A stretch of 64,000 nucleotides of DNA. Source: Flavobacterium limnosediminis JC2902. GTDB lineage: Bacteria > Bacteroidota > Bacteroidia > Flavobacteriales > Flavobacteriaceae. Made by a program: the position numbers and the translations under genes. Positions 11,312 through 45,471 of this stretch are shown here, one piece after another (the first letter of the stretch is position 1; each line of letters begins with the position of its first letter). The notes beneath the pieces are model-generated. The model made no database searches. It was not told the DNA's origin and saw nothing but the letters and a program-made list of their open reading frames with translations. The stretch spans positions 124,001 to 188,000 of the forward strand of contig NZ_AVGG01000003.1 in NCBI RefSeq assembly GCF_000498535.1, in the 5' to 3' direction.

Positions 11312-12277
11312 TTAAATATCGTTCAGCATCTTCGTGATTTCATCCAATTTTGGAGTCAGGATGATTTCGATACGACGGTTTTTCGCTTTTCCTTCAGCCG
11401 TTTCGTTGCTCATTAAAGGCGAATATTCTCCGCGACCTGCCGCTGTCAGGTTTTCTTTTCTAACCGAAGTGTTTGACGTTAGGATATTCACGATTGCAGT
11501 AGCACGCTTGGTAGATAAATCCCAGTTGTTTTCCACACCACCACCAATGGTTCCGGTAATTTTATCATTATCCGTATGTCCTTCGATTAACACGGAAATA
11601 TCCGGATTGTCACCCAATACTTTTCCGACTAAGTCCACCGCTTTTTTACCGTCCGGATTTACTACCCAGCTTCCGGATTCGAAAAGTAGTTTGTTTTCCA
11701 TGGAAACGTATACTTTCCCGTCTTTTTGTTGTACCGTCAATCCTTTTCCTTCAAACGCACGCAACGATTTTGAAAGGGTTTCTTTCAGTTTGTTCATGGC
11801 CGCTTCTTTGGCTGCGATCATGCTTTCCAATTCGTTTACACGATCGGAACGGTCTTTCAAGTCTTTGTTTAATTTGTCCAGACGCGATCTTTCGGCAGCC
11901 AGGGCTTTTTCTTTAGCTTCCAGTTGCGCTAACAGATCACGGTTTTTATCCATGTTGCTTTTTAAAGCTTCGTCGCTGTTTTTTTCCAAAGCGTTGTACG
12001 AAGACTGCAATGTTTTTAAATTGTTGCTTGCCGCTGCATAATCCGAAGCCAGCTTGTCTCTCTCAGCTTTCAGTTTATCCAATTCCGATTGTAACGTGGC
12101 TTTTTCGTTTTCCAACTGACCTTTAGCGGTTGATAAAGCAGTGTTATCATCAGCTAATTGGCGGTTTTCTTTCTTTAAATCGGCGAATTTGGTTTCTAAA
12201 TCGGTATACATTTTTTTAGAAACGCAAGAGGTGGTTAAGGCTAACGCCAAAATTCCTGCAGATACATGTTTTATCAT
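11312..12277 (-). CDS. OmpA-family outer-membrane lipoprotein
   Basis: The start at ATG 12277 gives a lipoprotein signal with lipobox LTTSC. A long coiled coil (about 25-165, Leu/Lys/Glu/Ala rich) leads to a C-terminal OmpA peptidoglycan-binding domain: LLFESGSWVVNPDGK, VLIEGHTDND, DLSTKRATAIVNIL and KNRRIEIIL. It anchors the outer membrane to peptidoglycan through its Asp/Arg pair. An upstream TTG at 12304 would add nine residues before the signal and is unlikely. Monocistronic. Confidence 0.92.
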   Translation of the reverse strand: MIKHVSAGILALALTTSCVSKKMYTDLETKFADLKKENRQLADDNTALSTAKGQLENEKATLQSELDKLKAERDKLASDYAAASNNLKTLQSSYNALEKNSDEALKSNMDKNRDLLAQLEAKEKALAAERSRLDKLNKDLKDRSDRVNELESMIAAKEAAMNKLKETLSKSLRAFEGKGLTVQQKDGKVYVSMENKLLFESGSWVVNPDGKKAVDLVGKVLGDNPDISVLIEGHTDNDKITGTIGGGVENNWDLSTKRATAIVNILTSNTSVRKENLTAAGRGEYSPLMSNETAEGKAKNRRIEIILTPKLDEITKMLNDI

Positions 12278-12382
12278 TTTTTCGAGGTATTTATTATTAT
12301 TCAATTTCTCCTTTATACTTGTTTTTATTCTTTACTGAAAGTCCATTTTTCACAACTAAACTTCTGTTTCCGCCAAATCCCT

Positions 12383-12473
12383 AGCCCCGATGGGAGTGGC
12401 ATCCTTTTCTTGTCTCGTCTTTTTTGACGAGACAAGAAAAGATAGAACGTCCCGATAGCTATCGGAAAGCGGG
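12383..12473. ncRNA. Structured intergenic element, copy A (conserved flanks, variable hairpin)
   Basis: AGCCC-C-G plus the 15-mer GATGGGAGTGGCATC (12389-12403) abuts a perfect 16-bp hairpin (12404-12419 with 12426-12441, loop of six T), then ATAGAACG (12442-12449). An outer helix CCCG/CGGG (12386-12389, 12470-12473) closes it. Copy B at 43989-44072 has the same layout with an unrelated hairpin. A 15-nt palindromic insert sits at 12450-12464. It may be an RNA (the Flavo-1 motif is one candidate I could not test) or a bidirectional terminator. It lies between the stop of exonuclease III and the OmpA gene. Confidence 0.6.
12450..12465. repeat. Dispersed palindrome TCCCGATAGCTATCGG nested in copy A
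   Basis: CCGATAGCTATCGG is a perfect palindrome. The full 18-bp version TCCCGATAGCTATCGGGA occurs at 39544-39561. Copy B of the surrounding element lacks it. Confidence 0.75.
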
Positions 12474-12489
12474 AAACAGCTCCTGAAAG

Positions 12490-13251
12490 CTATTCTATTT
12501 CCACCAGTACCGGACAATGATCAGAATGTTTGGCTTCCGGTAAAATCACGGCACGTTTTAAACGGTTTTTCATGGGTTCGCTCACCAGATTGTAATCGAT
12601 TCGCCAGCCCTTATTATTTCCTCTCGCTCCGGCGCGGTAACTCCACCAACTGTAATTGTGCGGCTCCTTGTTGAAATGACGGAAGCTGTCCACAAAACCG
12701 CTTTTCATGAAATTGTCCAGCCAGGCGCGTTCTTCGGGTAAAAATCCGGATACTTTTGCGTTTCGGATGGGATCGTGAATGTCGATTGCCTCATGACAGA
12801 TGTTGTAATCGCCACCGATAATCAGATTCGGAATCTCCTTTTTCAGGTTGTTGATGTACGCCTGAAAATCGTCCATGTACTGAAACTTGTGATCCAGTCG
12901 TTCGATGTTGGTCCCGGATGGCAAATACAGGCTCATCACCGAAAAATCATCGAAATCGACTCTCAGATTACGCCCTTCCTTATCCATGTAGTCGATTCCG
13001 GTACCGTAGACCACATTTTTCGGCTGTACTTTCGATAAAATCGCCACACCGCTGTATCCTTTCTTTTCGGCCGGAAACCAATAATGATAAGGATAACCGG
13101 AAAGTTCGATGTCCAGGGTAGGAATTTGTTCGGGTGTCGCTTTGATTTCCTGCAGGCAAATCACGTCAGGATCAGCACTTTGCAACCAGTCGAGAAACCC
13201 CTTTGTTATGGCCGCACGTATTCCATTGACATTGTAGGATATAATCTTCAT
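12490..13251 (-). CDS. xth: Exodeoxyribonuclease III
   Basis: Endonuclease/exonuclease/phosphatase fold, 253 residues: MKIISYNVNGIRAA, DVICLQEIK (metal-binding Glu), GDYNICHEAID, the WRIDYNLVS segment and the terminal SDHCPVLVEIE catalytic Asp-His. It repairs AP sites. The ATG at 13251 gives the standard family start; the 13 upstream codons are not conserved in kind. A TACATTTG promoter element on this strand lies 20 bases upstream. Confidence 0.95.
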   Translation of the reverse strand: MKIISYNVNGIRAAITKGFLDWLQSADPDVICLQEIKATPEQIPTLDIELSGYPYHYWFPAEKKGYSGVAILSKVQPKNVVYGTGIDYMDKEGRNLRVDFDDFSVMSLYLPSGTNIERLDHKFQYMDDFQAYINNLKKEIPNLIIGGDYNICHEAIDIHDPIRNAKVSGFLPEERAWLDNFMKSGFVDSFRHFNKEPHNYSWWSYRAGARGNNKGWRIDYNLVSEPMKNRLKRAVILPEAKHSDHCPVLVEIE

Positions 13252-13270
13252 TCTCAGATAATCTTTTTCC

Positions 13271-13278
13271 CAAATGTA
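13271..13278 (-). promoter_or_regulatory. -7 promoter element for xth
   Basis: CAAATGTA on plus reads TACATTTG leftward, an exact TAnnTTTG, 20 bases before the ATG. Confidence 0.5.
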
Positions 13279-13411
13279 TAGAAAAAACAATCATATTTAA
13301 AACACAACCCTCAATTACTTATAAACAATTAGTCTTCAAACAAATAACAATGAAACCATCAGATTTTACATTTATACTTCACAAACATTTTAACGATTAG
13401 AGTATTATTGC

Positions 13412-30861: not shown

Positions 30862-30894
30862 AAAAAAAGGTGTCAATTTTTGACACCTTTTTTT
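30862..30894 (+). terminator. Terminator of metalloprotease 2
   Basis: AAAAAAAGGTGTCA pairs with TGACACCTTTTTTT (30862-30875, 30881-30894). Confidence 0.92.
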
Positions 30895-39360: not shown

Positions 39361-39490
39361 CGCAGCTCCGCAAAGTCGGGAGACTTTGCGGACTCATCAA
39401 GTATAAATTCATAAACCTACCCAAAAAGCTGCAACAATTTACCGTCACAACTTTTAGCTCAAAGTCGGGAGACTTTGCGCAGCGGGGTAT
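39361..39490. repeat. Dispersed element with hairpin ends, copy 1
   Basis: It begins cgcagctccgcaaagtc and ends gactttgcgcagcgg. Each end contains a hairpin GCAAAGTC-GGGA-GACTTTGC, and the outer sequences form imperfect terminal inverted repeats. The middle matches copy 2 (40154-40290), including GGACTCATCAAGTA, AAACCTA, CAAAAAGCT and TTACCGTCACA. The two lie in the same orientation on either side of an SRPBCC gene. Identity is by eye. Confidence 0.8.
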
Positions 39491-39543
39491 GCGGGCGCTG
39501 TTATAGGCTGTGTTTACTTCTTTGTGTTTTTAAGATATTCCTG

Positions 39544-39561
39544 TCCCGATAGCTATCGGGA
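39544..39561. repeat. 18-bp perfect palindrome TCCCGATAGCTATCGGGA
   Basis: It lies 3 bases downstream of the SRPBCC stop. A 16-nt version is nested in the structured element at 12450-12465. Confidence 0.85.
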
Positions 39562-43988: not shown

Positions 43989-44072
43989 AGCCCTGATGGG
44001 AGTGGCATCTTTTACACCTGACAGTCACGCCTTGGCGTGACTGTCAGGTGTAAAAATAGAACGGACAGCAGG
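43989..44072. ncRNA. Structured intergenic element, copy B (conserved flanks, variable hairpin)
   Basis: AGCCC-T-G plus GATGGGAGTGGCATC (43995-44009) abuts a perfect hairpin of at least 20 bp (44010-44029 with 44036-44055), then ATAGAACG (44056-44063). An outer helix CCTG/CAGG (43992-43995, 44069-44072) is CCCG/CGGG in copy A, a covarying pair. The hairpin shares no sequence with copy A. As in copy A, its end faces the 3' end of a leftward gene, here mgtE. Confidence 0.6.
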
Positions 44073-44118
44073 AACATGGATTGCAAAGAAACCCAAGCCA
44101 TTCGCTTCAAAAAAAAAA

Positions 44119-45471
44119 CTAAAACCCTAAGATGACTCTGGCGATATTTAAGTAAATTAAAATCCCGAGAATATCGTTACTGGTGGTAATAAAGGGTCCG
44201 GTCGCCAATGCGGGGTCGATACCGTATTTGTTCAGGACTATGGGAATAAAGGTTCCGATCAGGGAAGCAGTGATGATTACCGTAATTAAGGCAATGGCAA
44301 CAACTTCACCAATAGCAAACTCAAAGCCCAACAAAAAATGACTGCCTAAAAACAAAATGACTGCCAAAATAAAACCATTAAGCAAACTCAGGGAAAGTTC
44401 TTTAAGCAAACGCTGCGCTAAGGTTCCGGTAATGGCATTGTTCGCCAGACCCTGTACGATAATCGCCGAGGATTGCACGCCCACATTTCCGGCCATCGCG
44501 GCAATAAGCGGAGTAAAGAAAAACAGTTTGCCGTGTTCTTTCATGACGGCTTCAAAAAGCCCCATTACATGAACGGTGACAAAACCACCAAACAAAGCCA
44601 AAACCAACCACGGCAAACGCGCACGGGTGAGTTCGAGGATGCTGTCATCCGCTTCCACGTCCTGCGAGATACCGGCTGCTAACTGGTAATCCTTGTCGGC
44701 TTCTTCCTTGATTACGTCGATAATATCATCAATGGTGATACGGCCCACCAATCGGCCCATTTCGTCCACCACGGGAATGGCTTCCAAGTCGTATTTCTGC
44801 ATGATACGGGCTACTTCCACATCGGGAGTATCCACTTTCACGTAATCTACTTTTTTGATGTAAACTTCACTGATGGGAGTTTTGGTAGAGGTAGTCAGTA
44901 AGTCTTTCAACGATAAACGGCCTTTTAGGCGGTCTTCGTCATCCACCACATAAATGGAGTGCACGCGGGTTACGTGCTCGGCCTGCTGACGCATTTCCTT
45001 TACGCAGGTGAGTACGTTCCAGTTTACGTTGACTTTCACCAACTCTTTTCCCATCAAACCTCCGGCGGTATCTTCGTCGTAACGCAACAAATCGACAATG
45101 TCTTTGGCGTGTTCAACGTCTTCCAGCTCGGAGATAACCTCTTCCATTTTGGACTGCGGAAGTTCGGCGATAATGTCGGCCGCGTCATCGGTATCCAACT
45201 CATCGAGCTCTTCGGCAATTTCTTTGGCTGAAAGGCGGCGTAAGATATTTTCCCTTAAATCGTCTTCCAGTTCCAGCAGGATTTCCGCCGTTTTCTCGGA
45301 ATCCAGCACTTTGAAAATATAGGTAGCTTCGTCGAAATCCAGTTCGTCAAGGATTTCGGCAATATCAGCATGGTGCAGGTCATTCAGCAATACTTCCAGT
45401 TGCTGGTCGTTTTTACTTTGAATGAGTTGCTCTAATTGTTGAATTAGGTCTTTGCTGATTTTAAACTCCAT
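44119..45471 (-). CDS. mgtE: Magnesium transporter MgtE
   Basis: 450 residues. The N-terminal MgtE_N helical superhelix (about 1-130, Asp/Glu/Leu rich) is followed by paired CBS domains ([60 protein letters not shown]) and five membrane helices with [23 protein letters not shown] and [17 protein letters not shown] pore motifs. It imports Mg2+ and closes at high internal Mg2+. The start overlaps the rsmA stop by 11 bases. Confidence 0.95.

What the first reader, a model, noticed from the sequence alone, without database searches (positions are those of the whole stretch)
12383..12473. Structured element copy A: conserved flanks with a hypervariable perfect hairpin
A 15-nt block GATGGGAGTGGCATC and the block ATAGAACG sit exactly at the two feet of a perfect 16-bp hairpin. 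The second copy (43989) has the same blocks at the same positions but a hairpin of unrelated sequence. Pairing is conserved while sequence is not, which is stronger evidence for selection on structure, or for a copying mechanism that rebuilds the arms, than sequence identity would be.
Basis: partly seen in the sequence, partly recalled or inferred. Interest (0 to 1): 0.68.

Follow-up and report, generated by a model that had tools for sequence, protein, structure and literature searches.

The report
Flavo-1 RNA repeats with swapped hairpins
Both copies belong to a known, scattered family of folded bacterial RNA elements with no known job, and comparing neighbouring species suggests that the outer hairpin is often exchanged while the base of the fold stays in place.

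Summary
Both copies carry the stated blocks at the feet of perfect hairpins. They match Rfam RF01705 (Flavo-1): copy B 57.7 bits against a cut-off of 42; copy A 39.2, its 3' foot interrupted by an 18-nt palindrome. The host is a Flavobacterium with at least 76 matches (63 over the cut-off); 58 of 61 sampled genomes of the genus have the family.

The foot covaries: one pair is Watson-Crick in 144 of 144 parsed copies with all four pair types. At the same sites in a relative (flanks 86% identical), 24 of 33 parsed hairpins (26 by the automatic measure) are replaced, while foot pairs are kept more often than between random copies. In a second species pair (92%) 3 of 32 are replaced. Inside hairpins G-T and A-G mismatches (16, 11) outnumber A-C and C-T (2, 0), so the fold of one strand, probably as RNA, is maintained.

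One arm family also occurs as a free palindrome, one orthologous pair shows a loop inversion, and some sites carry a full cap in one species and a stub in another. Function stays unknown; I favour a shape-read, cis-acting RNA element, although gene context shows no tie to transcription. New member of a known kind.

The parts
12379..12480 (+). Flavo-1 copy A, whole element (interrupted copy)
   Evidence: Rfam RF01705, 39.2 bits, E 3.2e-7, below the gathering score of 42; the copy beside the same gene in relatives scores 68.1 (L088) and 43.4 (L087)
12389..12403 (+). copy A 5' foot GATGGGAGTGGCATC (lower stem with purine-rich internal loops)
   Evidence: exact match; foot covariation in the family
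12404..12419 (+). copy A apical hairpin, 5' arm (16 nt)
   Evidence: read; perfect inverted repeat
12426..12441 (+). copy A apical hairpin, 3' arm (16 nt); loop 12420-12425
   Evidence: read
12442..12449 (+). copy A 3' foot ATAGAACG
   Evidence: read
12450..12467 (.). palindrome TCCCGATAGCTATCGG(AA) interrupting the 3' foot of copy A
   Evidence: 16-bp core CCCGATAGCTATCGGG has 26 exact sites in the own genome, 0 for the reversed control (copy A's own copy is one of the inexact ones); a like insert is in the G079 orthologue L087 and absent from the G172 orthologue L088
43985..44079 (+). Flavo-1 copy B, whole Rfam match
   Evidence: RF01705, 57.7 bits, above the gathering score
43995..44009 (+). 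copy B 5' foot GATGGGAGTGGCATC
   Evidence: exact match
44010..44031 (+). copy B apical hairpin, 5' arm; its TTTTACACCTGACAG resembles, by eye, the arm family TTTTA(T/C)ACCTGACAGG
44034..44055 (+). copy B apical hairpin, 3' arm
44056..44063 (+). copy B 3' foot ATAGAACG
   Evidence: read
44080..44108 (+). outer 'type 2' tail ATTGCAAAGAAACCCAAGCCATTCGCTTC, shared in form by many copies
   Evidence: flanks of the 76 copies printed, by eye
12490..13290 (-). neighbour: Exo_endo_phos protein (exonuclease III-like), stop 9 bp from copy A
   Evidence: Pfam PF03372, E 2.5e-31
11312..12304 (-). neighbour on the other side of copy A: OmpA-family protein
   Evidence: Pfam PF00691, E 1.5e-16
44119..45471 (-). 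neighbour: MgtE divalent cation transporter, stop 39 bp from copy B
   Evidence: Pfam PF01769 and PF03448
42672..43748 (-). neighbour on the other side of copy B: D-2-hydroxyacid dehydrogenase family (start codon uncertain)
   Evidence: Pfam PF02826 and PF00389

Best explanation
Both sites are copies of the Flavo-1 element. SHOWN: a dispersed, mostly intergenic element made of a covarying lower stem with purine-rich internal loops, capped by a hairpin in which pairing is kept and sequence is not. SHOWN by comparison of species: at one chromosomal site the cap can be replaced while foot pairs are kept more often than chance, and the mismatches that are tolerated show that one strand (plus, in Rfam's orientation), as a single folded strand, is what is maintained at resident copies. 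PARTLY SHOWN: cap sequences are shared with free palindromic repeats (one arm family; the direction of transfer is not shown) and can be altered by template switching (one loop inversion). INFERRED: the maintained strand is RNA; a protein or nuclease reads the foot and the presence of a double-stranded cap in whatever transcript runs through the site, and changes processing or stability of that RNA, much as REP/BIME hairpins do in enterobacteria (recalled).
For: Family: RF01705 hits. Foot covariation: N3 pair 144 of 144 WC (TA 68, CG 56, GC 18, AT 2; shuffles mean 56.0, max 73), N7 155 of 160 with four types (shuffles mean 53.3, max 70), and N3 and N7 exceed all shuffles in each of four genomes alone. 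Strand asymmetry: GT 16 / AC 2 and AG 11 / CT 0 inside helices, one hairpin per cluster (looser count GT 22 / AC 4, AG 38 / CT 1); lower stem GT 12 / AC 1 (related copies counted apart); changes between orthologous hairpins WC-GT 15 / WC-AC 2; plus strand folds more stably than minus as RNA in 152 of 226 copies. Cap replacement: 26 of 33 parsed same-site pairs between G000 and G079 fall below the 95th percentile of random pairs; by eye two of the 26 are not replacements (L040/L340 the same cap with an insert beside it, L070/L332 a shortened relative), leaving 24. 17 of these 24 also resemble each other in the 45 nt beside the element beyond 95% of random pairs on at least one side, 3 on both. 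Foot pairs N3 and N7 are each the same in 12 of the 16 with parsed feet (random 0.39 and 0.34; binomial p 0.004 and 0.001). Six same-site pairs were dropped because a hairpin did not parse; two of them show a full cap against a stub (L310/L069 and L035/L334).
Against: No transcript was seen here. Orientation to neighbouring mechanical ORFs looks random: antisense to both 20, convergent 16, divergent 13, sense to both 12 of 61 classified, so 33 of 61 have no co-directional upstream neighbour. Weinberg et al. rate Flavo-1 probably an RNA but probably not cis-regulatory (PMC2864571, table passage). A F. psychrophilum study found hits in sense and antisense of transcribed regions and many outside them (PMC9723704, passages). 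No enrichment of the promoter-like TAnnTTTG upstream (plus strand 28 of 226, minus 47 of 226). G-T and A-G are also well tolerated in single-stranded DNA (recalled), so RNA is not proven. For the two window copies the minus strand folds as well as the plus. 16 WC-to-other changes in kept hairpins show that pairing is often broken. In arms-replaced pairs all five foot pairs are the same in only 3 of 17, and Y12 is kept no better than between random copies (0.41 against 0.35), so the foot changes too. In G286/G119, at similar divergence, only 3 of 32 caps are replaced. A permissive parse of the foot gave GT-type 10 against AC-type 8; I take the difference from the strict parse to be misplaced rows, not checked one by one. 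15 of 226 copies have no regular cap.
Confidence: 0.48

Rival explanations
1. Mobile DNA repeat: Flavo-1 is a REP/MITE-like element moved as single-stranded DNA by a transposase that recognises the foot; the fold of one strand matters for mobilisation, not as RNA.
For: Strand is not even everywhere: 50 of 76 listed copies plus in G038 (p 0.008) and 12 of 14 on contig C1 of the own genome.
Against: The one Y1_Tnp gene lies among other repeats and no Flavo-1 match falls in its 3.2-kb locus. 19 of 61 genomes have no Y1_Tnp at the threshold, and 10 of these 19 hold 30 or more Flavo-1 matches. No switch of orientation along two complete chromosomes (50 of 76 and 41 of 74 listed copies plus; origins not located, lists cut). 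Sites are shared: 39 of 76 copies have a same-site partner in G079, and resident copies keep pairing. No clean empty site was found; the element-free xth locus L089 lacks more than the element.
Confidence: 0.23
2. Mutation alone: template switching and palindrome insertion keep the arms complementary without selection on the fold.
For: Cap replacement; loop inversion in L273/L293, whose inner 16 nt match the reverse complement (0.94) better than the direct sequence (0.81) (1 of 24 changed but homologous hairpins); an arm family also found as free palindromes; foot changes between orthologues are WC-to-WC double changes 18, WC-GT 1, WC-AC 1, other 13. Template switching can make and repair RNA hairpins (PMC8794818, abstract and opening read).
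Against: Strand-symmetric copying should not give GT 16 / AC 2 and AG 11 / CT 0 or WC-GT 15 / WC-AC 2. It does not explain the shared foot letters of the copies.
Confidence: 0.13
3. A set of independent small RNAs in which the cap is the variable, target-specific part.
For: Rfam files it as 'Gene; sRNA'; caps differ between copies.
Against: No enrichment of a promoter-like motif upstream, and a T-run within 45 nt downstream in only 29 of 226; caps are self-complementary and are replaced between relatives.
Confidence: 0.08
4. Ordinary terminators of neighbouring genes that share feet, perhaps acting on the minus strand.
For: Copies A and B lie 9 and 39 bp after stop codons of minus-strand genes. 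On the minus strand TTTTT lies within 45 nt beyond the element in 74 of 226 copies, 40 of 76 in the own genome, largely the type-2 upstream tail.
Against: 13 of 61 classified copies lie between divergent ORFs; on the plus strand a T-run follows within 45 nt in 29 of 226; the feet covary, which a terminator does not need.
Confidence: 0.06

Closest known systems
Flavo-1 RNA, Rfam RF01705 (Weinberg et al. 2010, PMC2864571: table row seen in a passage)
   Same: Copy B scores 57.7 bits (cut-off 42); same foot and capped hairpin; 58 of 61 genomes of this Flavobacterium genus have matches, 0 of 14 control genomes. Range outside the genus was not searched.
   Different: Copy A is interrupted by a palindrome and scores 39.2. 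The passages seen give no function, no cap replacement and no strand-asymmetric mismatches.
REP/BIME elements with RAYT (Y1 transposase) (PMC3733652, passages; otherwise recalled)
   Same: Many short, dispersed intergenic hairpins with a conserved foot.
   Different: The genome's RAYT-like gene sits with other repeats; many Flavo-1-rich genomes show no Y1_Tnp at the threshold.
Template-switch-made RNA hairpins (PMC8794818, abstract and opening read)
   Same: Stems changed in one step; double changes; one loop inversion here.
   Different: There studied in RNA genes such as rRNA; here a repeat family where caps are exchanged at many sites.

Membership tests
Flavo-1 (RF01705) | score at or above the curated gathering score, copy B | tested here: met
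   57.7 against 42 bits
Flavo-1 (RF01705) | score at or above the curated gathering score, copy A | tested here: not met
   39.2 against 42 bits. I therefore call copy A an interrupted copy, placed in the family only through the copies beside the same gene in relatives, L087 (43.4 bits) and L088 (68.1 bits), which pass
Flavo-1 (RF01705) | found in Bacteroidetes | tested here: met
   58 of 61 genomes of the same genus, 0 of 14 control genomes; nearest named MgtE relatives are Flavobacterium species
Flavo-1 (RF01705) | expressed as RNA | not testable with these tools
   no transcript data held; PMC9723704 reports mixed sense/antisense and many hits outside transcribed regions (passages)
REP element with RAYT | copies beside a Y1_Tnp/RAYT gene | tested here: not met
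   the single Y1_Tnp locus of the genome (L085) carries other repeats and no Flavo-1 match
REP element with RAYT | GTAG or CGTC tag at the foot | not tested
   not scanned; tags taken from the title and passages of PMC3733652
intrinsic terminator | T-run directly after the stem | tested here: inconclusive
   TTTTT within 45 nt beyond the Rfam match: plus strand 29 of 226, minus strand 74 of 226; exact distance from the stem not measured
independent sRNA | own promoter upstream | tested here: not met
   TAnnTTTG (motif recalled) within 120 nt upstream in 28 of 226 on the plus strand, 47 of 226 on the minus strand: no enrichment; other promoter types not covered

The most novel reading that the evidence does not exclude
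The Flavo-1 cap is a cassette position: whole hairpins are swapped in, out and down to stubs in situ by palindrome capture and template switching, and selection then keeps those that fold on the plus strand. RNA stems here evolve largely by replacement of the hairpin, not by successive compensatory point mutations, at dozens of parallel sites per genome.
Probability: 0.45. Interest if true: 0.75.

Novelty: new member of a known kind. Interest (0 to 1): 0.5.

Why it matters
Flavo-1 is abundant (73 to 114 matches in the six genomes searched closely) and the papers found here give it no function. The strand asymmetry of mismatches is a reason to treat it as a working single-stranded fold and names the strand to look at. 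Cap replacement at the same site, seen at some two dozen loci between two species, offers a large natural data set for how RNA hairpins arise and keep pairing.

Tried and rejected
Replication-strand bias: no orientation switch seen along two complete chromosomes, but origins were not located and G038 has an overall plus excess (p 0.008). RAYT mobilisation as sole driver: not supported. Promoter of its own: no enrichment; terminators: few on the plus strand, more on the minus. Foot counts: the permissive parse gave GT 10 / AC 8, the strict parse (160 of 211 copies with a parsed hairpin, 226 held) 12 / 1. Arm counts: an unrefined parse gave GT 65 / AC 13, superseded. The hairpin parse asks for some pairing, so it cannot by itself show that caps are paired; 15 of 226 copies failed it, among them copy A (because of its insert) and five stub caps. 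It also misplaced the cap in L308, L344 and L345; those three pairs differ by eye all the same. Pairing G286 and G119 copies by offset alone mispaired several loci; flank BLAST replaced it (33 of 40 by 40). The automatic foot flag for free palindromes was unreliable, so contexts were read by eye: of 18 exact sites, 7 in Flavo-1 caps, 8 without Flavo-1 feet, 1 with a degenerate 5' foot, 2 not read. Clean empty-site analysis was not possible with the loci held. Of the 30 loci beside xth, 9 were scanned with Rfam; the rest were only read by eye. Of the 80 MgtE loci, 5 were scanned; the printout of the others was cut.

Full report
What is there. The two blocks and hairpins are as described: a 16-bp perfect hairpin in copy A and 22 complementary positions in copy B. 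Such inverted repeats lie at three places in the window and in none of 10 first-order Markov windows. Rfam identifies copy B as Flavo-1, RF01705, 57.7 bits against 42, and copy A as the same family at 39.2 bits, below the cut-off. Copy A's 3' foot is interrupted by the palindrome TCCCGATAGCTATCGG(AA); the 16-bp core of that palindrome has 26 exact sites in the genome and none for the reversed control.

The family. The own genome (3.47 Mb, 56 contigs) has at least 76 matches at E of 0.001 or better, 63 over the cut-off; only 150 of 922 candidates were scored, and one further copy (C37:6818) was seen. 58 of 61 sampled genomes of the genus have it, 0 of 14 controls. The nearest named MgtE protein is from Flavobacterium saliperosum, 97%. 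Most of the 76 copies share a foot of the form AGCCC[C/T]GATNNNAG[T/C]GG..ATCC / GATNNA[A/G]CGGANAGC[G/A]GGA, and by eye three outer frames: a short one ending in AGCTCC, a longer one with a tail like ATTGCAAAAAAGCCCAAGCCATTCGCTCC, and one with GCGTTAGGGAT..AGCCCGACCC..ACGCCC.

Gene context. With mechanical ORFs of 180 bp or more on both sides, 61 of 76 copies could be classed: antisense to both neighbours 20, convergent 16, divergent 13, sense to both 12. There is no visible tie to the direction of transcription. In two complete genomes the listed copies are 50 of 76 (p 0.008) and 41 of 74 on the plus strand, without a switch along the chromosome (lists were cut, 86 and 81 matches exist, origins were not located).

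Covariation of the foot. In copies whose foot could be parsed without assuming any pairing (160 of 211 with a parsed hairpin, 226 held), the pair called N3 is Watson-Crick in 144 of 144 (TA 68, CG 56, GC 18, AT 2; the 16 type-3 copies have no N3), N7 in 155 of 160 (GC 72, TA 40, AT 35, CG 8), Y6 in 158, R11 in 154 and Y12 in 140 of 160. Shuffles reach at most 73 of 144 and 70 of 160 for N3 and N7, and N3 and N7 exceed all shuffles in each of four genomes alone. Copies in related genomes are not independent.

The cap is replaced in situ. Between the own genome and G079, 39 one-to-one pairs of copies share both flanks (76 and 70 copies held; median flank identity 85.8%). In 33 pairs both hairpins parse, and in 26 of these the caps fall below the 95th percentile of random pairs. 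By eye two of the 26 are not replacements (L040/L340, L070/L332), leaving 24. 17 of the 24 also resemble each other in the 45 nt beside the element on at least one side beyond 95% of random pairs, 3 on both; for the other 7 an independent element in the same gap cannot be excluded. Where feet parse (16 of 24), N3 and N7 are each the same in 12, against 0.39 and 0.34 for 2704 random pairs; but all five foot pairs are the same in only 3 of the 17 counted, so the foot changes too. Two of the six dropped pairs have a full cap in one species and a stub in the other (L310/L069, L035/L334). In G286/G119 (median flank identity 91.8%) only 3 of 32 caps are replaced and 12 hairpins are identical; turnover differs between lineages.

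Copies A and B in relatives. Beside the same gene, G000, G079 and G172 have the same 5' foot with different caps. The caps are not wholly unrelated: the outer nine bases of the stem in G079 (CTTTGCTTG) match copy A's (CTTTTCTTG) at eight, the difference being a paired T-A to G-C change, while the inner part differs; G172's cap differs beyond CTTTT and is imperfect. G225 (L089) and G009 (L091) have no element there. At copy B's site F. saliperosum (L116) carries a copy, read by eye, with a different, imperfect cap and a palindrome insert; Rfam did not report it at the cut-off, and reported none in L117 and L118.

Where caps come from. The palindrome CCTGACAGGT..ACCTGTCAGG has 18 exact sites in the genome: 7 are Flavo-1 caps, 8 stand free, 1 has a degenerate foot, 2 were not read. 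The direction of transfer is not shown. Another cap family (GAGATTGC..GCAAGCTCGCAATGACAGA, up to 3 mismatches) has 11 distinct sites, 10 inside Flavo-1 and all ten in the element's orientation, which fits exchange between Flavo-1 copies better than random palindrome insertion. One orthologous pair, L273/L293, differs by inversion of the loop region, a known outcome of template switching (PMC8604942, start of abstract seen; PMC8794818, abstract and opening read). That is 1 of 24 changed but homologous hairpins.

Which strand matters. If the palindrome were kept only as DNA, G-T and A-C mismatches, or A-G and C-T, would be equally common, since each turns into the other on the opposite strand. 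Counting one hairpin per 75% cluster (76 clusters of 211 hairpins) and only positions with Watson-Crick pairs on both sides, G-T is 16 against A-C 2 and A-G 11 against C-T 0. The foot gives 12 against 1 (a permissive parse had given 10 against 8), changes between orthologous hairpins 15 against 2. The plus strand folds more stably than the minus as RNA in 152 of 226 copies, though not in the two window copies. So resident copies appear to be held to a fold of the plus strand. RNA is the simplest carrier; single-stranded DNA is not excluded.

What it is not, as far as tested. A T-run follows within 45 nt on the plus strand in 29 of 226 copies, on the minus strand in 74 of 226; the promoter-like TAnnTTTG (recalled motif) lies upstream on the plus strand in 28 of 226, on the minus strand in 47. 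The single Y1_Tnp gene of the genome sits among other repeats; 10 of the 19 sampled genomes without Y1_Tnp at the threshold have 30 or more Flavo-1 matches.

Literature. Searches for 'Flavo-1 RNA' (0 papers), for the 104-RNA paper title or Flavo-1 (117 papers, 30 listed, most of these only citing that title), for RF01705 (4 papers), for Flavobacterium with palindromic and 'intergenic repeat' (0) and for Bacteroidetes with REP and RAYT (2) showed no functional study and no description of cap replacement; the library lacks most subscription papers, and papers other than those named were seen only as listings. Weinberg et al. rate Flavo-1 as probably an RNA and probably not cis-regulatory (table passage), which stands against my cis-acting reading. 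The F. psychrophilum transcriptome paper found no functional clue (passages).

Verdict. What is added is same-site cap replacement and the strand asymmetry, which together say that a folded plus strand is kept while the sequence of its cap is largely free.

Noticed in passing
L085 1250-2450 (own genome C17 near 119111): A RAYT-like Y1_Tnp gene lies among repeats of the form CCCGATAGCGCGGATTTGCAATCCGTGCCCACAAAG and CCCGCTAGCGCGAGCATCTTGCTCGCACCCACAAAG, possibly its own REP units.
   Followed up: partly
L245 and L288, 5' foot of Flavo-1: A separate sequence containing ATTTGATATTAAGAGGAG is inserted at the 5' foot of Flavo-1 copies in two genomes, with foot letters (CTAGCCC...) on both sides, as a small insertion element might leave.
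   Followed up: no
window 39543-39560 and other sites: The palindrome TCCCGATAGCTATCGGGA (16-bp core at 26 exact sites in the genome) often lies inside Flavo-1 feet or tails but also free, as here in the window.
   Followed up: partly
L069, L072, L079, L334, L339: Flavo-1 copies whose cap is only a stub of a few bases around a tiny loop, some with a full cap at the same site in the other species.
   Followed up: partly
window 39361-39490: Two nearby copies of a hairpin containing CAAAGTCGGGAGACTTTGCG, another repeat.
   Followed up: no
L061, L062, L064 (ends of contigs C1, C17, C18): Three Flavo-1 copies with nearly identical short caps (CCCGCAGCGCAGCGGAGGAAT) lie near contig ends; two share a long upstream sequence, suggesting a longer repeat that broke the assembly.
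   Followed up: no
L124, L139, L156: MgtE genes 80-88% identical to this Flavobacterium protein in records titled Candidatus Nitrotoga, Limnohabitans and Rhizobium: probably misbinned contigs.
   Followed up: no
window 30862-30894: The third perfect inverted repeat of the window (15 bp, loop 3), just after a large plus-strand ORF, looks like an ordinary terminator.
   Followed up: no
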